A stretch of 64,000 nt of DNA from Daphnia carinata (taxonomy: Eukaryota > Arthropoda > Branchiopoda > Diplostraca > Daphniidae). Within the stretch, counting starts at the first letter, position 1. Each line of letters begins with the position of its first letter. The DNA lies in assembly GCF_022539665.2 (NCBI RefSeq), contig NC_081333.1, positions 6,136,971-6,200,970 of the forward strand, in the 5' to 3' direction. The position numbers and the translations under genes are program-made. Below, piece by piece: positions 2,074 through 59,795 of the stretch. The notes under the pieces are model-generated. The model was not told where the DNA came from. It saw only the letters and a list, made by a program, of their open reading frames with translations, and did no database searches.

Positions 2074-3096
2074 TTCTTCTATATGTATCTCACTGAAACC
2101 CAATGCTAGACTGGTACAAACTTCTCAAATTGCTTTAAACTGCCTATGCTTGATCAGGATAATCATAATTAATAAAAAAAACATTTTCTGTATTACACGT
2201 TTTCTACAGTGCACAGTAATACAACAAACGTGTATTTACTTACCACTACCCACGTATCCATATCAGGAAAAATCGACTAGAATAGATCTACCTAACTGTG
2301 AGTGAGAGGTTTATGTAAACAACCCACGTATGTGTAGTATTTATACACTGTGGTCGCACATCACCCCGTATTTCACGAGTTACAGTATTCGATTCTGCTA
2401 TTTAATGTTCGTTGATTTGCGTTTTAATATGCGAAGACGAATCGGTTTTCCACCAAACGGAGATCTGTTTTAACCTACCCGTAAATAGATATAGCTAGCT
2501 AAGTAAACAGAAGAAGACTGCTGTGCCCAAACAGTACACAATTTAACCGTTTGTCTTCCTTTTTCGTCTGCTGGTAGTGAATCGTGGAAAACATTTCCCA
2601 TGCCCCTACCGAGGCGGGAACGCAGGACATGCCATTCAACGCAACCGTGCCCATCTAGGTTGGTTCTATGTCTCTGATGTTATGCTCGTATGTTAGTTCT
2701 CCTCCTGTTTTTGAGACAGAATTTTAAGCTCTGCAACTCAGCATCCGGTACAACTCTATTCTGAATCATTTTAGGTAAAACATTCTAACAAATAGTATCA
2801 TATAAACATATAAGTCACCATAATACAAATAAATGAATGAATGGACATCGTATATGTATATACTAACACGCAAATGTAGCTATGAATCTAATTCACAAAT
2901 ATTAAAATATTAAGGCTTATTAATTGTATATTCTCTAATAAACTAAAGAGCAATCTCTCCTAAGGAAAAAAGAACAAAAATATAATTTCTTAATAGTATA
3001 AAGGAAGAAAAAATCGGATACATAGCGGAGCAGGAGATGAATGCCATAAGTTTTTGTAATAGACAATGGTAATAGGCAATTGCCGTTTATTGATGA
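2074..3096. other. Intergenic, no gene recognised
   Basis: This is the 5' flank of the kelch gene followed by AT-rich DNA. I see no convincing coding exon, RNA gene or tandem repeat. The kelch promoter should lie in the first few hundred bases, but no clear TATA box could be assigned. Confidence 0.5.
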
Positions 3097-3436
3097 GGGC
3101 GCATTTTGGCGTCAACCGTTAGTTCAACCTTTTTGGTTCAACTATTGTGAGTGGTTGACGTTAAAATGGTCTGAGGTTGAACTGCCCAGCTGAACTACTA
3201 GTTTACGGTAAAATGACAGTTAATGTCAATTGACATCCGCCAGGTGGCTGCCTGCTACATTTTCGTCTGCTTATTTTTGTTTACATTCTGTGTAACATTG
3301 TACGATTTTATAATTGTCAAAGTTAAAATTAATACAACCATTTTATTATCTAAAAACTTTATCCTAAATATTTGTAAGTATTTTATTATTGATTGAAGTG
3401 ACTATGTATAACAACATTTATATAAATTTAGGTAAT

Positions 3437-3547
3437 ATGGCAGATAAAAGAACATTATGTCTTCTTCTGTCGCAACATATTTACAATGAAATCCAATCAT
3501 CCAGTGAAGAAAGTGAATCTGACATTTTTATAAATCAATATTTTTAG
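3437..3547 (+). pseudogene. N-terminal remnant of a Harbinger-type transposase
   Basis: A 36-codon reading frame starts MADKRTLCLL and has an acidic serine stretch (SSSEESESD). Such acidic N-termini are common in PIF/Harbinger nucleases, but no catalytic domain follows. It overlaps, tail to tail, the last codons of the minus-strand Myb gene (which ends at 3528). Assignment rests mainly on its position inside the element. Confidence 0.35.
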
Positions 3548-3917
3548 AAATGTAGCCTCTATATACTTTGCGTAGATTTTCCCATTTGGTCTTGCACATT
3601 TGAATTTTATCACTGCCACGAATAGAAAATCCAGCTTCTTCTAGTTCAGTGGCTATGCAGTGCCAAAGTTGCCGTTTGCCTGTCTTCGAATCGCTTAACA
3701 TTGCCCATTTATCTTTTAATAAACCTAAATGTAAATGGGTTGATGTTTTAAATTATAAATTTTAAATGAACTAAGTATAATATAATAACTTACCCAAAAA
3801 ACATTCGGTAGCCTCAGCATCAATTGCTACTTGTGTGGCAGTTTTTTTCCCATTCCAACACTCTTTCTTTGGAATAACTTCTTCTGTTTCACTTACATAA
3901 TAGAAAGGACTTTCCAT
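3528..3917 (-). CDS. Myb/SANT-like DNA-binding protein of a Harbinger element
   Basis: Two exons, 3794-3917 and 3528-3724, joined through a 69-bp intron with GTAAGT donor and TTTAG acceptor. The product is about 106 residues. It starts MESPFYYVSE, and its second half has the spaced tryptophans of a trihelix/MADF-type Myb domain: DKWAML, LWHCIATEL, and CKTKWENLRKVY. In Harbinger elements such a protein helps bring the nuclease to the TIRs and into the nucleus; that role is inferred. The frame is open across both exons, so it may still be expressible. The start is the first ATG of the open frame. Stop at 3528-3530. Confidence 0.6.
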
Positions 3918-4073
3918 TTTGACTGAATCTGTAAATTCAAACAACTAAAAAAAAAGTAAAAGAAAATCAAGTTTAAAAATACAGACAACGTCTGCAGTAA
4001 ACAAGGTTGCAATACTTATTTTCTACAGAAAACGAAATGCGTAAAAAAAATTAGCTCTACTACGGTTGACCTA

Positions 4074-4365
4074 GGGCGCATTTTGGCGTCAACCATTTGT
4101 TGAACCTTTTTAGTTCAACTTTTCGTCAAAGTTGACGCCAAAATGGAAGTTCATCGCTACAGTTGAGAAAGGGGAGGAGTTGCAGTTCAGTTGAAGGTCA
4201 ACGGTGGTCTGGACCACCGTTGAAAAAGCTCAACTGTCTCAGTTGAACCTCCCACTGGCGTTGTTGCCAAAACGGTCGCCTAGTTGAACCATCTACCGGG
4301 CAGTTGACGCAAAAATACCAGTTCACTAAAAAAGTTGAACTAAAAGTAGACGCCAAAATGCGCCC
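4074..4365. repeat. Nested MITE with the same TIRs as the Harbinger-like element
   Basis: A 292-bp unit begins GGGCGCATTTTGGCG and ends with its complement. It is flanked by CTA at 4071-4073 and 4366-4368. It contains no coding sequence, only inverted GTTGAAC/GTTCAAC motifs. It interrupts the right arm of the larger element, so it inserted later. Confidence 0.7.
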
Positions 4366-4841
4366 CTAGAGCTCAACGGTAGTTTGAACCACCGTTGAAG
4401 AAGTTCAACTTTTTCAGTTCAACTTACCCTTGCAGTTGGCGCCAAAACGGTCAACCGGTTCAACCATCTACCGGACAGTTGACGCAAAAACGCAAGTTCA
4501 CTGAAAAAGTTGAACTAAAAGTAGACGCCAAAATGCGCCCTGAATTCGGGGTGGCAACGCAATCGTTGCTCCGCAAAAAAAAAAATCTCCATACGGAATA
4601 AATGAAAGCTTCCGATTTACGCGAGGCCGAGCCCTAGCCGCAGGTACTGCAGCCTACAGGGTACTTTGGAGGGGCTAGTCCGTACATAAAAGACCGCAAT
4701 TTACCCAATCTGCAGTCCGCGTCCGCCTTTTACTCTGGTCTAATACATGGTAATCGTAAACGTTTTGCTACTGTCCAACGACAACCTGTCCATTCTGTCT
4801 GTACTATTTACCACTGTTCAGGATGTTTTGATGGCAACAAA

Positions 4842-6132
4842 ATGTCGTATTCAAAATTGGAATGGTTCGAAAGCTACAAAACATGGGTGGTAACAAACCC
4901 AGAAAGGCTGTTCCAGTTCGAAACAGCCGGCCGTTTCCTCTCGTACTTAATTGCCGGTATAGTTACCTTAGTTCACTGTTACTTATAGTCCATTGATAGT
5001 AATCCTACCGTTACTCTGAACAGGCCGCATAAAAACATCACCAGCCATTTCTGAGTTGCTGTACTCAGCTTCCAATATTATTAGTAATGATAATCATATA
5101 ACAAAGCTTAAGTAACAGCATTATTGTTTAAATATAGTATTTTTGAATGATCAAATAATATTGAGATCAACACACCATAAAGAATTGGACCCCAAAACAG
5201 CAACATTTGTGGAAAAATGTAGAATCTTATTTACTATTTTGGAATACCTTCAAGTGTTTGTGGAGATCACAGCAACCAAAATTTGGGGTTCATATGGAAA
5301 ATGGACTGCTGTAGCTGTTATACAATTAATCAAGTATGTACATTTGACTGAATGCCTCTGGCTTTTTTTATTCATAAGAAATTTCTTTCTTTCCTTGAAT
5401 ATAGATTTTTATGGAGGGTTTTCATGTTGATCCAGCAAGCTGGGATAGCATCCTCACAAGCCATTCGCCCCCTTAACAGGAAAAAGCTTAGACAGAACCA
5501 ACTGTCAGAGTCCAAATGTGATATGGAAGGAAAAAATAATCTTACTTTCACCCTGAAGTCTGGAAGGGTAATTCGGCAAGTCAATGGGGCACCCCAGATT
5601 CATAAACGTAACTGGAAACTCCCTAGTTCACAACCACCGCAAGGCCATGTTGTAAATAACAGGAAGCTAGAAGGATATTCCTTACTTGGAGAAGTAAGTC
5701 ATTGCTTAAACTATTGAGGAATACTCCTCATTCTAATAACTGCCATTTCAGGTAAGTATTACTAAACAAATTTGGAATTTCGATGTTTAGGTACTTTATA
5801 CGTTGAAACCGCTTTGTCACCTCGTCGCAATGAGCCGCTTTGGAACAAAATCTTGGATTCCGACGTCAATAGCATTTGCTACAGATATTGCAAGTATAAC
5901 GCTGTTGAACTCAAGTTCATTAAACTGTGAAGATGCACGAGAAATTCGACGACGTCAGATTGCTCTACTAATGTATCTCTTACGGTCACCGATCTACGAC
6001 CGCTTTAGTCGAACTGTCATTTTACAGACAATGACTTATTTGAGAAAGGTTCCTGTTGTCGGAATTTTGCCTCAACAGTTTCTTCAGTACATGTTGTTCT
6101 GGCAAAATGTATACTGCTATACTTGGGATTAA
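4842..6132 (+). CDS. Pex16: Peroxisomal membrane biogenesis protein PEX16
   Basis: PEX16 is an integral peroxisomal/ER membrane protein that recruits PEX3 and helps insert peroxisomal membrane proteins. Five exons, 4842-4956, 5024-5083, 5138-5333, 5405-5693 and 5791-6132, join in phase to 333 residues, against about 336 in human. Recognisable blocks are the N-terminal RFLSYLIAGR, the ISELLYSASN segment, LEYLQVFVEI with KIWGSYGKW, the basic RVIRQV region, and the C-terminal YLLRSPIYDRFS with a WQN..CYTW end. Donors are GTAT, GTAA, GTAT and GTAA; all acceptors are AG. The start is the ATG directly before SYSKLEWFESY, which matches the family N-terminus. It lies just right of the Harbinger-like element, so its promoter must be close to or within that element's right flank. 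Confidence 0.9.
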
Positions 6133-7269
6133 ATTATCTTCCCACACAAATTTTCTTTCAGGGTAGAGCTTAGTAACATAAACTGGATATGGATATTACA
6201 TATTTTGCAGTGTGATTTTGATGGGAAATAATATTGTGAATTTTTTCTGGGGACGCTGTCATAGTTTTGTTAATTTTTCGCACATTTTTCGATTGTTTCA
6301 ACTACGGTTGTCACTGCAAAAAAAAATAATTCAAAAGAATCATCGTTCAACAGACATTAAATAAATTTCAAAAGCATGATTCATCTCCTACAGTATCCAT
6401 AAAATGCACAGCACCAGAACCCTCTTTTTTTTCTTTTTGACTTTTTACATGAGCTGTTATGGCAAGTAGTAACTCATGTGGAATAAGTTGTGAGAGAGAA
6501 TAAATATATTCATTACTAAAGGTTTGGAAGCTGCATTGAACAAAAGATCAAGCTATTTGGCTTTTTTTTTCAAGTATGTTCTCATAAGCGATTAATAAAA
6601 CACGCACCGGTTATTACTTGTCAGTATATCAGTTTGGTCCGTGCTGTTATGAAATTTTTTTTCATGCATAAATTTTACCTTGTATGCCGGAAGTGAATAT
6701 AATGATGCAATATTCACCACGTATGGGTAGGCTATATGCCAGATACATAATTTTTCGTAGAACATAATATCTTTACATATTATTTCTCGCGTATTAAACA
6801 GAGTACACCGCTGCTTGCAAAAGTTAGATCCTTTTTATTTTGTGCAAAAAATATAAACGAATGTTTTTTAAAAATAACTTTTTCAATTACTTATCTGTAT
6901 CAACGAGAAAGTAAAACAAAGAAGGAACCTGATAAGTGTTAAGAAAAATAAAAAGCGAAATAAATAATACAGAAATTTTCTCCTTGACCCAGAAAGTTCT
7001 GTCTCATCATTACCTTTTGCACAATTAAAGTCTATTCTAACGCGTTAACAGATAAGCACGCCATTCTTCAATGGCGTGGGCGAATGGAATCATTTACCAT
7101 TATGTTAAAAATCCCAATGGCATTCTTAAAATTTAGTTTTTTCCTTTGTTTTCGTCAGAGGCGAGAAGATTCTTCTAGATTTTTAGATTTTTGTTATGAG
7201 ACGGATGTCGTAGATCGGATAAAATGTATTTTTGGTGATCTGTATACTATGTACAGAATGGGGTTTTGT
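6133..7269. other. Intergenic, 3' flanks of PEX16 and CHMP2A
   Basis: AT-rich DNA between two genes that converge here. AATAAA-like signals occur at about 6498 and 6592. No further exon, RNA gene or repeat could be supported. Confidence 0.4.
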
Positions 7270-52200: not shown

Positions 52201-52429
52201 TCAAGCAATGGGATAAACATATTGCAAAATATTTCAAGTTGGTTATTATTTGCATATATTTTTGCCATAGTTTGGTTTTTGTTGCATTTCACCAGATTAT
52301 AGCTTCTCAGCTTCCCATTCATATTGTTTTTATCGATTAACACATATCATGAAAATTTTTATTTCATTTATAATTTCATTTCATAATGACAACGGTCTAA
52401 AGGGCATTTTCACGGACTCTACGAAATCT

Positions 52430-53215
52430 TTCAACTGCGATTAAAGCTTCTTTCTCGTTTCATCAGGAAAAGGGAAAGTTTGTCAAAACTGGCGACTAAA
52501 AACTTGTTCCTCTCACTGGCATGAGGACAGTGCTACCCTCCGTCACAAGTAGCCTACTTAGAGGTTTCGACAGACGTGTCCCCAAAAAACGACACATCTA
52601 CCCCGACATACGTAACCCCGCAGAAAATGGAAAAACATCTCCCGTCAAAGCTACCCCGACATATGGACCCAATAAAAAATTTAAAAACGCTCCCGTCACA
52701 TCTACCCCATTATAAATATAATACAATTACAGCCGTCATATGTACCCTTTTGTTGTATTAAGACAGACATACCTACCCGTTCGTTTAAAACTGATCGACA
52801 CACCTACCCCTTCGATTAACACAGTCCGACATACCTACCACTTCGATGGAAATTGACCATCTTACCAACCCCTTCAATTAAAACAGTCCGACATACCTAC
52901 CTTTGCGTTGGAAACCGGACGACGCACCTACCCCATCGATATACAGACCGACATACCTAACCCTTTGTTGAAAGCTGATCGACACACCTACCCCTTTGTT
53001 TCGTTGAGCCCGACAAACTTACCCGTTCGTTTTTTTAAATCCGACTTACCTACTCCTACGTTCAATTTAGCCCGACACACCTACCCATTTGTTACAGGTT
53101 TTTTTATTTATGTATTTAGACTGGCTTAACTGTACCTCTGATAAGAAGCACCCGTTTTTAATCATCTTTGTTCTGTAAGAAGATAAGGTAATGAAACAAG
53201 ATATTATTTCCACGT
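52430..53215 (+). repeat. Left arm of the foldback-like element
   Basis: Its core (about 52575-53095) consists of 31-bp direct repeats of the type CCTACCCCTTCGATTAAAAC + AGTCCGACATA, with diverged left units. The arm ends near 53215. Confidence 0.85.
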
Positions 53216-53967
53216 AAGATACCGTACTGTTTGTATTATTTGATCAGCCTTAACAATATTATGATGCTATGAAGAGGGTTACAACGACTGGAAAGCATTC
53301 AATGAAGAAAGTTCCTACAAATTTTCTATTCATTCAGAAAATGAAGAAAGTTCCTATTCAGGTTACCGTCTCCATACTATTATTAGTTCCTTGAAATGAC
53401 GAACGAGACTACTTATGCCTTTTTGTTCGTTAGGGAATTGTAGGCAGGAGAAATGATAGCCGACTTATGGGAGAATCGCTGGATAGGTTTTTCTGTCGCA
53501 GAACGACATTAATTGTTGCCGCAACTACCCTACAAGTAATACTACAAATAATAACTCACAGTTCTAACTTGTACAACCCTCAGAAAAACGAGGCAAAAGA
53601 CTAGCCCTTAATCTACACCATTACTGTTGAAAACAAAGATCAGAAGCCTTATACAAACATGCACTGATTACCTTATTAGTTCCCAGAGCTCGTGAATCCA
53701 TCATATCTAATGTAATTATATATTACATACGCTACAGAACTTTACCACTTGCGGCAACAATTATACAAGTAGAAGTGTCCGACAGAGCTCTTGACAATTT
53801 ATAGTAGCAGACGAAAGGGAAAAACAAAAATACCGAGGCTAAACAGTATCCTTTTGTGTTAGTGCAATATTAGTAAGAACATAAGAAGAAAAGAAAAGGG
53901 TTTGACCTACGTATATTGATATTTACATTTACATTTCTACCAACAATTCCGCTGTATTTTCTTCTTA
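53216..53967. other. Interior of the foldback-like element, left
   Basis: AT-rich, no coding sequence recognised. One short direct repeat GAAAGTTCCTA... occurs near 53307 and 53345. Confidence 0.4.
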
Positions 53968-54655
53968 TTATTGCACAAAAATCCTTAAAATTTGTTGAAT
54001 AGGCGCCCGGCAAAAGCAGCAAAAGGGGCCGACACGCTCTGCACACATTGCACATAGGGTGTGCCCACACGAAATAAATGCAGTATCTATGGTGTTGATT
54101 AGGCACACACCACAAAGATTATGTGCAGCAGTGGGAGCAGCAATGTCAGCGGGAGAATCAGCGTCGGCGGGAGCATCAACGTCAGCAGGAGCAGCATCGT
54201 CACTGGAAGCAGCAACTTCAGCGGGATCAACCACCTCAAAGGGGGCAGCAAACTCTACCGGAGCAGCAGGTTCTACGATGATGTTTTGGTGTTACCCGCG
54301 GCCTCGTCGTTGACCTATAGGAATCGCTGGAGCGTCGCCATCAGGCCTAAGATAGCGTGGCATTAGGCGATTTCGGGTATGTCTTGGTAGCACGGCAGGC
54401 TGGTCATGTACGATGACAACTTGATCTTGTCGCTCGACCGGTGCATTCTCTTGTTGCCAGGTGCATTAGCTGGGACGACATGTGGATCCGGTATCAAGTT
54501 AGGCTGGGTAAGCGGTCTTCCGGCAACATTTCGAGGTCACCTTCCTGCAGCATTTCTTGGCGGACGAACACCAGCATGTCTTGGCAGATGAGCCCCAGCA
54601 TGTCTTGGCAAAAGTACTTCATTATTTGGTGGTGCATCCTCATTTACAGTCACAG
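53968..54655 (-). CDS. RING-finger protein inside the foldback-like element
   Basis: The C-terminal part (53968-54234) has an alanine/proline/aspartate-rich low-complexity stretch (ADVDAPADADSPADIAAP) and then a C3HC4-type RING: CGVC, CGHTLCAMC, CCFC. It ends with a hydrophobic QQILRIFVQ tail. This resembles the RING of IAP/MDM2-type E3 ligases and suggests ubiquitin ligase activity (inference). Further upstream, open minus-strand frames read LPRHAGAHLPRHAGVRPPRN and HTRNRLMPRYLRPDGDAPAI, so the gene probably extends to about 54655. A TAA at about 54294 and a frameshift at about 54450 must be spliced out or are lesions. The start is unknown; an ATG opens at 54232-54234. Confidence 0.55.
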
Positions 54656-56062
54656 GTAATTGTAGCAAATGTTAAAAGCCAAAACGATACATTAAAAAAC
54701 AGGTTTAGCTTTGAATTTGATGAATAGAGATATATACTTACAAAGAATCCAGCTGCCACTTCATGGAATCTCTGAAGACTGATTTTGCTATTCCACAGTA
54801 ATCTTGTATAGTGCGCGATACGGGCTTCTTGTCCAATCTATCGCCTCGTACGATGGCGACCTATTTCTTGGTCATCACGGAGTGCAGCCAAATCTCTGGA
54901 GGTGGTGGCTTCAACTTTTTGCAGATGTACTACGTAACAAAGAAACGTTAGTCCAAACAAATGTAGCGCGTTTGGAAATTCTAGTTCGTCTGCTTTTTAA
55001 CAGAGTGAACAAAGAGCTTTGTGACGTAGCCCACATTATTATTAAACGTTTCCATGGTTGCAAAAATAACTAATAAAAATAATTGATTTGAATCATTTTT
55101 GTTAAAGAAACATACAATCAGAATCTAAAAATCAAACCATATTCAGGGGTAAATAAAAAATCGTAATAATCAAGCAAAATTGATTGGAATCACTGATTGG
55201 AATCAAAATTTGATTGGAATCAAAATTGATTCGGGCGATATGCCCAGCACCCACCAAACGCCCCGCGGAACTCATTCAATTTTCATCCTTACCATGTAGT
55301 TCTTTCCTTTGTCCGCTAGAGGCACTACAATCAGATAAAGTATTTTGCTTTTTCTGCGTCAGAAGGGATAGGGCTAAAAGCATAGCACACCATGAACCTG
55401 TGGTCTTTATCTATGATATCAGTATGCGGTGTCGCGAGAAAAGAATTATAGTTTTTCTTTAGTGATGTCGATTATCAGTGTTTGCCTTGAATATTACGAT
55501 ACCGATATATTACAAAAGGTTATCGATGTTCTTATGCCAAATGACATGATATTTTTTGAAATTCACAAAAGCCTTGCATTCAAATCCGAACATTAACACG
55601 ATATATTGTCAGTTTTACGCTCTACCCGATGGAATGTGCTACGCACAATGATTTGGCAGTAATAGGGTATAGAATTCCGTAAATAAATAGGGTAAAAGCA
55701 ACGTTGTGTGCTTAATAATCCATCAAATCGAAACAAATTGTGAGGAACACTTAATAACACATAAGCATGCGACATCGTACAGGCTAGGAACTTTGTAAGT
55801 GGTTTCCGTTGAAGAGTAGGCTACTATGTAGCAATCTGGATTACAATGCTCTTCGACAAATCGACCTAGGGTACATTGAACTAAAATGGCGAAGTTTTTC
55901 TTCGACGATCATGGCAACATGGTTGGGCGGAATGCAGTAAAGGAAAACTCTGGTTGGTCTCGACCGTCGAGAATTTTCTTATTTTGGAAGGCAGCGACGA
56001 CCCATGTGTTGCAACAGTATTCATTTCATGGTTGGTCATTCATTTTTGATTTTTTTCAGTAT
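54656..56062. other. Interior of the foldback-like element, middle
   Basis: No recognisable gene. 55258-55415 (CCCCGCGGAACTCATTCA ... GTGGTCTTTATC) repeats 18950-19005 and marks a dispersed repeat. Four TGATTGGAATC-like repeats lie at 55175-55225. Confidence 0.4.
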
Positions 56063-56496
56063 TGTAAGGAACGGCCAACCGTACTCCTTACATTCCCCTC
56101 TCGTTCCTACGCTTGCAACCCTTTTTTCCCCTCTTCCGCCAACAGGTCATTTGCCGATGGCTCTGGCCTTCAAACTTGTCAATTCTTCACATAGGTGTTA
56201 CATTTCCACGCAGAATATTTATTCCCGATGGGACACCTAATCCTAAACGACCTTGCTTCTTCGTGTAAATGTTGCCCTTTTTCCAGATTGTGAGTCAGTC
56301 TACTTTCGGTTGTCATAACAGTCAGTCCAGTTTCAAGTGTCATCTCTGTCAGTCGGTCTCAGTAAGTTTCCCTTCGGCAACTATTAATTGGTCTTCGTAA
56401 AATACTGGAACATCCGTGCAACAATACAGTTCATCATCACTATTTCCCATTATTCAATAATTAAAAGTAAGGAACAGATCTTTTTCGAACCTTACA
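56063..56496 (+). mobile_element. Solo LTR 1
   Basis: 434 bp, from TGTAAGGAACGG to TTCGAACCTTACA, so TG...CA ends with inverted TGTAAGG/CCTTACA tips. A 4-bp target duplication GTAT flanks it (56059-56062, 56497-56500). It is the same family as 60579-61033. Confidence 0.92.
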
Positions 56497-56929
56497 GTAT
56501 AATTCGTCGTTCAGATAATACCAAGAAGAAAGGCGTAAAGCTAATCGGCTTTAGAGATGGAAGCCTTTTCGACAACCGATTCAGAAAGGAATAAAAGAAG
56601 TCTTAGCAATGCCAGGAGAAGGAAACAAACATTCGACAACAGGAGGAGTCTCCACCACCTCCTCCACATTCTTTGCCTCTTCTGTCTCTTTTAAGTTATT
56701 ACTAAGTTTAATTCACATAATATACAAAACAAAACAATCTTTTCTATCAGTTTTCCCAGTTACGCTTAGGGTTTTAGACTTCAGCTTATTTATGGAAACG
56801 GGGTAAAATGGTATGTATAGAAACCGAAAAATGAGGTCATAAATATTTAGTGTTTCGAAGTTCGAATTTCTTGCCCGCCGACCCACTCCCTGTTTCTGAC
56901 CGTCCATCACCTCACTTTTCTGCTGGCCA

Positions 56930-57052
56930 AGAACCCATCTGAAGTTACCCGTAGATCTCCTCTCTGCCCGTCAAACCACTCTTTGCCCGTCGACCCCCTC
57001 TCTGCCCGTCAACCCACACTCTGCCCGTCAACTCACATTGTGCCCGCAAAAA
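56930..57052 (+). repeat. Minisatellite, CTCTGCCCGTCAACCCA type
   Basis: Five imperfect units of about 19 bp (CTCTGCCCGTCAACCCA, TTTGCCCGTCGACCCCC). Related to 58285-58505. Confidence 0.75.
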
Positions 57053-57097
57053 TGCCTACTGGGGGACAACTACCTTTTTTTTGCATTTTCCCACCCC

Positions 57098-58263
57098 CTA
57101 GTAGCACAGCTGGTCCAAGCGACGTCACGGGGACGTCCAATGGACGTCGGTCTGTCCCAGCTAAGTCCGCCGTTTTCGAGACGGCTATGGATGTCCCTGG
57201 GACGTAATATTTCGGACGTCTTTCTAACCAGGGCAATGAAATATCCCAGTTACGTTCATCAGGGGACACGAAGGGACCCTAGAAGCATAGCCCGTCTTAG
57301 GGATGTCCTATTACGTCCCAGCTATGTCCGCCGTTTTTGATACGGTTATGGATGTCCCTGGGATGTAATATTTAGGACGTTGTTCAAACCATGGCAATGG
57401 AACATCCTAGCTACGTCCGGCAGGGGACATGAAAGGGACCCTATTGTTTATTCTATTATTATATTATGATAATGTCTGACTGAGTAAATATAGTTCTAAT
57501 TTTTTTTTCTCCATTTTTGCTATTCTTTCTGCTGTTTTTCCTTTATTTTTTTTCAAGGAATAATTTTTACTTAAAACCTACTTTACTATTGTTAAGGATA
57601 GTATCATATCATTTGATTCGAGAGCACGTTATGCTGAAGCATCCATCTTTCCGACCCAATTCGACACGTCGTCGCGGTTGTAGTCGTGCCCTATCACCGT
57701 AGATATCCATTTCCCCTTGAACTCTTTAACAAATTTTGGTCGTCTTTCATCTTTCGCTGCCCAATCTATTTGTATTCGATTATTTAGATCCCGTAGAATA
57801 TATAATATAATAGACGCCATCAAAACCGCGCCGGGCGTAGAATTGTTAATAGTAATTTTTGTTTAATTATTTGTATTTGTAAAAATAAATGAAATGTAAT
57901 TCAATTACCAGTGGTTTTATGGTTTTATTTTAATTGGAAGCTATTTCCAATACAAATTTTCCTGCGTCCTTTGCCTGCCGCGATCCGGACATTTCTCCGG
58001 ATGTTCCAATACGTACGTTCACTGAACGTACGGATTTGCCATCCTCCAGACGTCCAATTAAGGACGTCCGTAGTACTCCCAGCTAAGAACGTTACCAGGA
58101 CCTCCAATTAGTTACGTTCGTAGGACGTCCTCCAGTAGACGTCCCTGAAACCGGGCATTAGGACATCCTGGTGACGTACATCTGCCGTCAGAATGGGACG
58201 TCCCGATCGGACAGCCAGGACGTAGCTGGGATGTCCCTGGGACGGACAAAGGCTAGTAGGGCC
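57098..58263. repeat. GGACGTC-rich MITE-like element, copy 1
   Basis: Ends CCCTAGTAGCACAG (left) and GGCTAGTAGGG (right) are approximate inverted repeats. Both arms are dense in GGACGTC/GGGACGT motifs. The left arm has two direct copies about 166 bp apart (TGTCCGCCGTTTT.GA.ACGG at about 57165 and 57325). No protein was recognised; 57629-57823 is an isolated short frame. Confidence 0.6.
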
Positions 58264-58284
58264 CTTTCGTCACAGTCTCCACCC

Positions 58285-58505
58285 GTCAAAACCCCCGCTA
58301 TAGTTGTCCGTCCACTCACTTTTTGCTTCTGCCCGCTAAGAAGCCCGCTGTTATTGTCCGTCGACCCTCCCACTGCTCGTCGACCCACTCGCTGCTCGTC
58401 GACCCACTCGCTGCCCGTCGGCCCACTCGCTGCCCGTCGGCCCACTCGCTGCCTGTCAGCCCACTCGCTGCCCGTCGCCCCCCTCGCTGCCCGCCAAAAC
58501 GACCA
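58285..58505 (+). repeat. Minisatellite, CTCGCTGCCCGTCGGCCCA type
   Basis: About nine units of 19 bp (CTCGCTGCCCGTCGGCCCA), nearly identical at 58383-58480. All six frames are repetitive, so the reading frames here are artefacts. Confidence 0.85.
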
Positions 58506-58989
58506 ATATAGCTGCCCATTGACTTTTTCCTTGTTTTTGTCCGTCTTTCCCTCACAGTCTCAGCCAGGAAAACGCCCGCTGTAGTTACCCGTCAACCTAC
58601 TTTTTCCCTCTGCTCGTCTTTTCACGAATAGTCTCTGCTCACCAACCCCCTTTGTCCACCAAAAAAAACGCTGTAGTTGCTCACCGTACAGTCTCTGCCA
58701 GTCGGCTTACCTACTGTAGCGCTCACCTGATTTAAGCCAAGCCCGTAGACTGAAAAATTGCCTAAATCCGCAATTTCACCCGCAGTTTAGTTTTCCAAAT
58801 CCCCATCCCACCAATTCACTGTAGCAGACGGCGGTTTTGGCGCCAGCCAATCACAGCATCCCACAAATTCAACACAGCAGGCTGCGGTTTAGCCGCAAGC
58901 AAATCACAACAAAAGCACAACTTGATAGACACAGGCTCCTCCCTTTTTCCTTTTTTTTATATAGTATAGATTAAAGCTGATCAAATAAT
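58506..58989. other. Interior of the foldback-like element, right
   Basis: Degenerate minisatellite sequence, then a GC-richer stretch with two similar blocks (GGCGGTTTTGGCGCCAGCCA and TGCGGTTTAGCCGCAAGCAA at about 58830 and 58880) followed by a T-rich end. The paired blocks look like part of a further short repeat. Confidence 0.4.
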
Positions 58990-59780
58990 GCAAATAATAG
59001 GGTAAGCGGAATCATCTTGTTTCCTCATCTTATCTTCGTATGAGCAAAAAGATGATTAAAAATGGATGCTGCTTATCAGAGGTAGACTGAAGCCAGTCTA
59101 AATACATTTTTAAAAAGTCCTGTAACAAAGGGGTAAGTGCGTCGGGCACTATTATTCGAAGTGGTAGGTAAGCCGGATATTTAAAACGAAGGGGTAGGAG
59201 TGTCGGACTGTTTTTACAGAAGGGGTAGGTGTGTCGGAGTGTATCAACCGCAGGGGTAGGTGTGTCGCACTGTATTAATCAAAGGGGTAGGTGTGTCGGA
59301 CTGTATTAATCGAAGGGGTAGATATGTCGGACTGTATTAATCGGAGAGGTACATATGTCGACCAGTGTTCAGCGAAGGGGTACGCTTGTCGATCAGTGTT
59401 CAGCGAATGGGTAGGCTTGTCGGTCTCAGTTAAAAAATGGGTAGATAAGACGGCTTTTAAAAAATGAATTATTATCTGGGTAGTTTTGACGGAATCATTA
59501 TTCAGTGTTTCTCATGGGTAGATATGTCGGGGTAGGTCTAACGGGAGATGATTTCCGTTTTTTGTAAGGGTAGGTCTGTCGGGTAGGTATGTCATGTTTT
59601 GGGGTAGGTCTGTCGAAACCTCTAGGTATTTATGACAGGGGGTACCACTGTCTCTATCCCCTCTCACTGAAAAATTCTGATAAGGCGGGTAATTCCGTTT
59701 TGGCTAAATTTTCAGCGTCTAGATGGACATTACCCCCTTTTTTATTTTTCCTGATGAACGGACGCAACGTTGGATGTTAA
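58990..59780 (-). repeat. Right arm of the foldback-like element
   Basis: Inverted copy of the left arm. The 31-bp repeat reads AGGGGTAGGTGTGTCGGACT + GTATTAATCGA, with the cleanest units at 59240-59400. Confidence 0.85.
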
Positions 59781-59795
59781 AGGAAAAATGCCACC

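What the first reader, a model, noticed from the sequence alone, without database searches (positions are those of the whole stretch)
52400..59795. 7.4-kb foldback-like element with arms of 31-bp repeats and a RING gene
Arms of about 0.8 kb, built mostly of 31-bp direct repeats in perfect mirror order, are rare outside foldback elements. Enclosing a RING-finger gene, with no transposase, is unusual and could reflect gene capture by an element able to fold as a giant hairpin. It has also collected a solo LTR, two minisatellites and a MITE.
Basis: partly seen in the sequence, partly recalled or inferred. Interest (0 to 1): 0.75.

Follow-up and report, generated by a model that had tools for sequence, protein, structure and literature searches.

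The report
Broken foldback transposon with layered insertions
A 7.1-kb jumping DNA element with long, internally repeated mirror-image ends is best read as a broken Mutator-type transposon whose "RING gene" is the tail of its own transposase gene, and sister copies in the same genome carry a spliced copy of a host sugar-transferase gene that seems to have arrived inside a Copia retrotransposon.

Summary
The foldback element is real, but its ends lie at 52518 and 59660, not 52400 and 59795. It has a perfect 8-bp target duplication (CTCTCACT). Its ends recur in the 108-Mb genome: 35 left and 31 right ends at up to 2 mismatches. Of 22 loci tested, 18 had both ends, and 10 of these show 8-9 bp duplications. 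The arms match at 80%, not 'perfectly'.

The RING is best read as element-borne, not captured. In 13 of 16 genomic places it lies within 3 kb of a family left end, always antisense to it. In 5 places a MULE transposase domain lies 0.4-1.3 kb upstream on the same strand; the best scores 44 bits (PF10551). The window copy kept only the 3' part. The family is thus Mutator-like (MULE).

The surprise is in sister copies. They carry a GALNT glycosyltransferase copy without the parent's 8 introns, joined to Copia reverse-transcriptase sequence at 11 shared bases. All 7 junction loci found are family copies. The window has a solo Copia LTR (53625-53927) at the same site. Known kind, new variant: two-step gene capture.

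The parts
52510..52517 (.). left target-site duplication CTCTCACT
52518..59660 (+). whole element (7143 bp), non-autonomous MULE-type foldback copy; left end GGCATGAGGACAGTG, right end CACTGTCTCTATCCC
52518..53284 (+). left arm; 31-bp repeat block about 52734-53100
53625..53927 (-). solo Copia LTR, 303 bp, TG..CA; flanks ATTAC/TTTAC resemble a 5-bp duplication (4 of 5)
53968..54291 (-). RING-finger (C3HC4) end of the presumed transposase gene, 107-aa open frame
54358..54950 (-). upstream remnant of the same gene, homologous to L047 and to the C4 copy, downstream of their MULE domain
55386..56062 (.). internal segment shared with several sister copies; no function assigned
56492..56860 (.). internal segment shared with several sister copies; no function assigned
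56863..58971 (.). block absent from sister copies, with two 19-bp minisatellites; right part (58500-58971) is a dispersed repeat; stands where sister copies have about 130 bp or more of family sequence
58970..59660 (-). right arm; 31-bp repeat block about 59124-59440
59661..59668 (.). right target-site duplication CTCTCACT

Best explanation
The finding is a decayed, non-autonomous member of a foldback family of the Mutator-like (MULE) superfamily. Shown: defined ends; 8-9 bp target duplications in 10 of 18 two-ended copies; arms built of 31-bp repeats; copies from 1.3 kb (arms almost alone) upward; and, in fuller or related copies, a MULE transposase domain with a RING finger 0.4-1.3 kb downstream on the same strand, antisense to the left end. 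Inferred: domain and RING belong to one gene; the window copy retains only its 3' part; transposase supplied by a fuller copy bound the arms and moved the element by cut-and-paste, giving the duplication. A second layer lies in sister copies. A GALNT mRNA was reverse-transcribed as part of a Copia element, by template switching at an 11-bp match. The chimera (5' LTR, primer site, gag start, spliced GALNT, 3' part of Copia pol, 3' LTR) entered one MULE copy and was multiplied with it. Missing introns, the 3' junction, the LTRs and the shared location are shown; the complete chimera is pieced together from several copies, and the order of events and template switching are inferred. The solo LTR in the window copy is inferred to be what LTR-LTR recombination left.
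For: Ends and duplications; 8 of 18 two-ended copies have an 8-bp duplication with at most 1 mismatch (1000 re-pairings: mean 0.47, maximum 4; re-pairing leaves some true pairs in place, so this is generous to chance), and two more have 9 bp. Empty site. Gene: 13 of 16 RING places lie within 3 kb of an L-type end (two of the ends with 3 mismatches), all 13 antisense to it. A MULE-like peptide has 13 matches (E up to 1) in 9 places; the 5 best places all have the RING downstream on the same strand. PF10551 scores 44 bits, E 3.1e-11, cutoff 27.6, on an exon pair joined at a GT-AG intron of the C4 copy. GALNT: parent of at least 9 exons, 612 codons; each of its 8 introns is absent wherever a copy spans it. 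Copia: RVT_2, 80 bits, in relative L054; exact 11-bp match GCAGAAGGTGA at the junction; the 7 junction-spanning loci found are in family copies; LTR followed by GGTTATGGGCCCAG in L032 and a near form in C8_1879; sister copies empty at the LTR site.
Against: 8 of 18 two-ended copies show no duplication, 4 of 22 loci lacked a recognisable left end, and the widest pairs (19 and 30 kb) may be false pairs. The copy with the best MULE score (C4:8282272-8312785) has both ends but no duplication and was read only in part. Its MULE exon pair is open, but stops and frame changes occur elsewhere in the gene in every locus read, so no working transposase was found. Two of the five MULE-RING places (C7, C12) are 97% alike and not independent. 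The 4 weaker MULE places had no RING match. FLYWCH-like pieces gave no Pfam hit. No single copy read holds the whole LTR-GALNT-LTR unit, and the 5' joint is unresolved. The 7 junction loci need not be 7 separate insertions (C9_1132 and L031 are very similar). The window copy has no GALNT, and a plain Copia at that site would leave the same solo LTR.
Confidence: 0.85

Rival explanations
1. One reading: a foldback element that captured a host RING gene.
For: RING finger inside the arms and no transposase recognised in this copy. A host parent was sought only by six-frame search of this genome and one protein-database search.
Against: All 13 RING matches within 3 kb of an L-type end are in the same antisense position; two of them lie in diverged copies L047/L048 (ends with 3 mismatches, RING 48% and 40% identical). 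A MULE domain lies upstream in 5 places. The 20 genome matches showed no clear host gene.
Confidence: 0.06
2. The arms are two unrelated insertions of a dispersed 31-bp satellite.
For: Both arms are 31-bp arrays.
Against: Non-repeat outer ends and inner non-repeat arm sequence recur with the arrays in sister copies; flanking duplications; empty site.
Confidence: 0.01
3. The family belongs to another foldback-forming superfamily (P/Galileo, hAT) and the MULE-RING gene is a separate passenger.
For: 8-bp duplications also fit hAT and P elements (recalled). One MULE in copy C10_984 did prove to be a separate nested element with its own ends and a 9-bp duplication.
Against: The RING sits at a fixed place and strand relative to the L end, also in diverged copies, with the MULE domain upstream of it in 5 places; 9-bp duplications occur too.
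Confidence: 0.08
4. GALNT was captured from DNA and lost introns later, or was taken up by the MULE from a free processed pseudogene rather than through Copia.
For: No copy read holds the entire LTR-GALNT-LTR unit; copies are deletion derivatives. The 5' joint is unresolved.
Against: Each of the 8 introns is missing exactly. No poly(A) was seen at the 3' junction in the four copies printed; instead it passes into Copia pol at 11 shared bases. An LTR and primer-like site precede GALNT in L032 and C8_1879.
Confidence: 0.13

Closest known systems
Tm1 Mutator/Foldback family, root-knot nematodes (PMC3169594; abstract and passages seen)
   Same: Foldback arms with internal repeats, 8-10 bp (mostly 9-bp) duplications, asymmetric end motifs, some members with a Mutator-like transposase and others without
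   Different: About 14-bp arm repeat; no RING, GALNT or Copia-borne gene in the passages seen
FB4 and Ssk-FB4 of Drosophila (PMC8277862; section 9 and passages seen)
   Same: Arms of about 700 bp, 9-10 bp duplications, argued there to be MULE, with a captured gene in several copies
   Different: Ssk was captured with its upstream sequence, not as a spliced copy; here the gene is intronless and Copia-borne. That survey discarded intronless captures of multiexonic genes
Ghost and Phantom MULEs (PMC6446971, passages seen); Phantom-like MULEs of Daphnia pulex (PMC2884549, passages seen)
   Same: Ghost: a RING ORF besides the transposase ORF; Phantom: 8-10 bp duplications, TIRs up to 613 bp, Crustacea among hosts, minisatellite after the ORF in aphids
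   Different: No 31-bp foldback arms or captured gene in the passages seen; clade membership not tested here
LTR-mediated retroposition (Tan 2016, known here only as cited in PMC5408686 and PMC8277862)
   Same: Host mRNA joined to LTR-retrotransposon sequence at microsimilarity by template switching
   Different: Here the chimera lies in a DNA transposon and was multiplied with it

Membership tests
Foldback elements | long inverted arms made of tandem repeats | tested here: met
Foldback elements | moves as a unit: target duplication and empty site | tested here: met
   window copy; family: 10 of 18 two-ended copies
MULE superfamily | MULE transposase domain in the family | tested here: met
   PF10551 44 bits in the C4 copy; related sequence at 5 RING-bearing places. 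Not found in the window copy
MULE superfamily | 8-10 bp target duplications | tested here: met
   8 or 9 bp in 10 of 18 copies
MULE superfamily | catalytic DDE triad complete | tested here: inconclusive
   profile matched over positions 4-97 of 99; triad not placed residue by residue
Phantom or Ghost clade | transposase phylogenetic placement | not tested
   fragments only; no tree made
Phantom, FLYWCH-bearing members | FLYWCH zinc finger | tested here: inconclusive
   two FLYWCH-like pieces of a decayed copy gave no Pfam hit at E up to 1; the N-terminal part of the gene was not delimited
Pack-MULE | MULE carrying a captured host gene fragment | tested here: met
   sister copies, GALNT; not met by the window copy
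LTR-mediated retrocopy | spliced gene copy within LTR-element sequence with microhomology, no poly(A) | tested here: met
   3' side; 5' side LTR seen but joint not resolved
Copia solo LTR (window 53625-53927) | TG..CA ends with 5-bp duplication | tested here: inconclusive
   ends met; duplication 4 of 5

The most novel reading that the evidence does not exclude
Two-step gene capture: an LTR retrotransposon took up a spliced host mRNA (GALNT) by template switching, the chimera landed in a foldback MULE, and the MULE multiplied it over the genome as intronless 'Pack-MULEs'. This class would be missed by surveys that filter out intronless captures, and it links RNA-based and DNA-based gene duplication in one lineage of copies.
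Probability: 0.72. Interest if true: 0.65.

Novelty: new variant of a known kind. Interest (0 to 1): 0.5.

Why it matters
It ties a foldback family to a superfamily by the position of its own gene, where some foldback families (Tetris in PMC4079207; FB4 in PMC8277862) lack a known transposase. It shows that a RING finger inside such an element can be a remnant of the element's own gene. It also gives a step-by-step fossil of host-gene mobilisation through a retrotransposon and then a DNA transposon, a kind of capture that a published animal survey excluded by design (PMC8277862). I did not see this combination in the listings of nine searches of the held library; most subscription papers are not held.

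Tried and rejected
MULE ORF in copy C10_984 as the family's transposase: rejected. It is a separate element, about 98% like L037, with ends GTGTCCACCC and, in C10, a 9-bp duplication TTATGGATG.

RING homologues in the large protein database: 67 candidates, none at E 0.001 or better. Rfam at gathering threshold: no hit in the window. FLYWCH: no hit with two pieces. Upstream 5' exon of the GALNT parent: not found by an 81-base query or in L036.

Selection on GALNT copies: copy-to-copy dN/dS is 0.78-1.20 in six pairs among four copies, and 7 of 8 copies measured against the parent have stops or frameshifts (C8_1879, 142 codons, has none). They look neutral since amplification. Against the parent dN/dS is 0.19-0.58 in the 8, which may mean earlier constraint but also contains the parent's own branch. 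RING exon: about 52 codons in six sequences, too few to decide.

Host identity: given by no tool. A crustacean such as Daphnia is my guess from the look of the retrotransposon proteins (recalled), untested.

Ends left unexplained: most of the 38 left and 36 right end matches outside the 22 tested loci were not read, and some (for example at C5:9250953 and C5:9271523) did not pair up.

Full report
What is there. The window lies on contig C3 (6136971-6200970) of a 108-Mb genome in 106 contigs.

Ends. Alignments of other copies stop at about 52518 and 59660. Around these points the window reads CTCTCACT-GGCATGAGG...CTATCCC-CTCTCACT. Joining the flanks gives a sequence that aligns in one piece to L029 (C2) and L030 (C4) at 73%.

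Family. Pattern scans with up to 3 mismatches found 38 left ends (35 at 2 mismatches or fewer; reversed control pattern 1) and 36 right ends (31 at 2 or fewer; control 5). I tested 22 loci for both ends and found both in 18; the other 4 lacked a recognisable left end. Eight of the 18 have an 8-bp duplication with at most 1 mismatch; 1000 re-pairings give 0.47 on average and 4 at most, and re-pairing leaves some true pairs in place. Two more (C9_945 and C5_5542) have 9 bp with 0 and 1 mismatch. Eight show none. Sizes of copies read with both ends run from 1278 bp (C5_9711, arms with about 50 bp between them) to 16.7 kb (C10_984, swollen by nested elements). I chose pairs with one left and one right end, so the constant polarity is partly by selection.

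The RING gene. The window frame 53968-54291 (minus) carries a C3HC4 RING (PF13920, 37.5 bits). The genome has 20 matches in 16 places. In 13 of the 16 (window included) a left-type end lies within 3 kb, and in all 13 the RING runs antisense to it. Two of these are diverged copies whose ends differ at 3 of 20 bases (L047, L048); they are 97% like each other. Upstream of the RING in L047 is a peptide with a weak MULE match (E 0.017, below the curated cutoff). Searching with it gave 13 matches at E up to 1 in 9 places; the 5 best places all have the RING 0.4-1.3 kb downstream on the same strand, the 4 weaker ones do not. In the C4 copy (C4:8282272-8312785, both ends, no duplication, read in part) two exons joined at a GT-AG intron give PF10551 with 44 bits, E 3.1e-11, over profile positions 4-97. 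The window copy matches this gene only from 54950 downward, so the transposase part is gone and the RING part stayed. Stops and frame changes occur in this gene in each locus read. That domain and RING form one gene is inferred.

Captured gene in sister copies. ORFs inside several copies match GALNT: Glycos_transf_2 71.6 bits and Ricin_B_lectin 42.9 bits. The closest gene outside the family is C1:5185500-5189500, of which 9 exons read as 612 codons without stop. Element copies align exon after exon; each of the 8 introns is missing wherever a copy spans it, which points to an mRNA origin. At the 3' side the copies pass from GALNT into another sequence at GCAGAAGGTGA, 11 bp shared exactly by the parent and by dispersed repeat L052; relatives L053 and L054 differ from it there. 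That repeat is Copia: a 342-aa frame in L054 gives RVT_2, 80 bits. Of 21 matches to a query over both junctions, 7 span the GALNT-Copia junction, and these 7 lie in copies of this family; 10 are Copia alone, 3 the 5' stretch alone, 1 a short piece. At the 5' side, L032 shows LTR, then GGTTATGGGCCCAG (a tRNA-Met primer site, recalled), then a gag-like start, then GALNT; C8_1879 and C9_1730 show near forms. The 5' joint itself was not resolved.

The window's solo LTR. The Copia LTR in the window is 53625-53927 (TG..CA). C9_945, C1_8749 and C10_984 are empty at that site, and C2_6862 and C5_5542, which carry GALNT-Copia, have the same right flank. The simplest reading is that the window copy descends from a copy with the provirus and lost it by LTR-LTR recombination; a plain Copia there would look the same.

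Later decay. About 2.1 kb beside the right arm (56863-58971) is absent from sister copies. Its right part is a dispersed repeat; the relatives listed that reach this end stop at 58971-58974. GALNT copies carry stops or frameshifts in 7 of 8 measured, and copy-to-copy dN/dS is 0.78-1.20 in six pairs.

Literature seen. Passages of PMC3169594, PMC6446971, PMC2884549, PMC5408686, PMC4079207, PMC2955051 and PMC13317346; section 9 and passages of PMC8277862; otherwise search listings. That Drosophila FB arms also hold 31-bp repeats is recalled; searches for '31 bp' in PMC4079207 and PMC2955051 found nothing.

Verdict. A real foldback element of MULE type, corrected in extent and in the meaning of its RING gene. 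The copy itself is an ordinary decayed one. Its family records an unusual two-step gene capture.

Noticed in passing
C10:987686-990970 (L027, position 2987-6271) and L037 (C4:8041992-8044973): A separate MULE with ends GTGTCCACCCGTTTCGGCAC, nested in copy C10_984 with a 9-bp duplication TTATGGATG; the two copies are about 98% identical, transposase frames partly open.
   Followed up: partly
   Followed up: partly
window 56863-58971: Block with two 19-bp minisatellites; its right part is a dispersed repeat ending in TATATAGTATAG. It may be a rolling-circle (Helitron-like) element, not tested.
   Followed up: partly
L047 (C7:11552700-11560200) and L048 (C12:11300-18800): 5.8 kb shared at 97% between the end region of contig C7 and small contig C12: segmental duplication or an alternative haplotype.
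   Followed up: no
C8_1879 copy (L018), GALNT 5' part: N-terminal GALNT portion has dS 0.60 to the parent against 0.20-0.31 for the seven other copies measured, with no stops: possibly a different or older source.
   Followed up: no
C1_8536 (L009) and C9_1132 (L022) copies: Retrotransposon polyprotein frames (up to 1116 aa), BEL/Pao-like by eye, inside family copies; not scanned.
   Followed up: no
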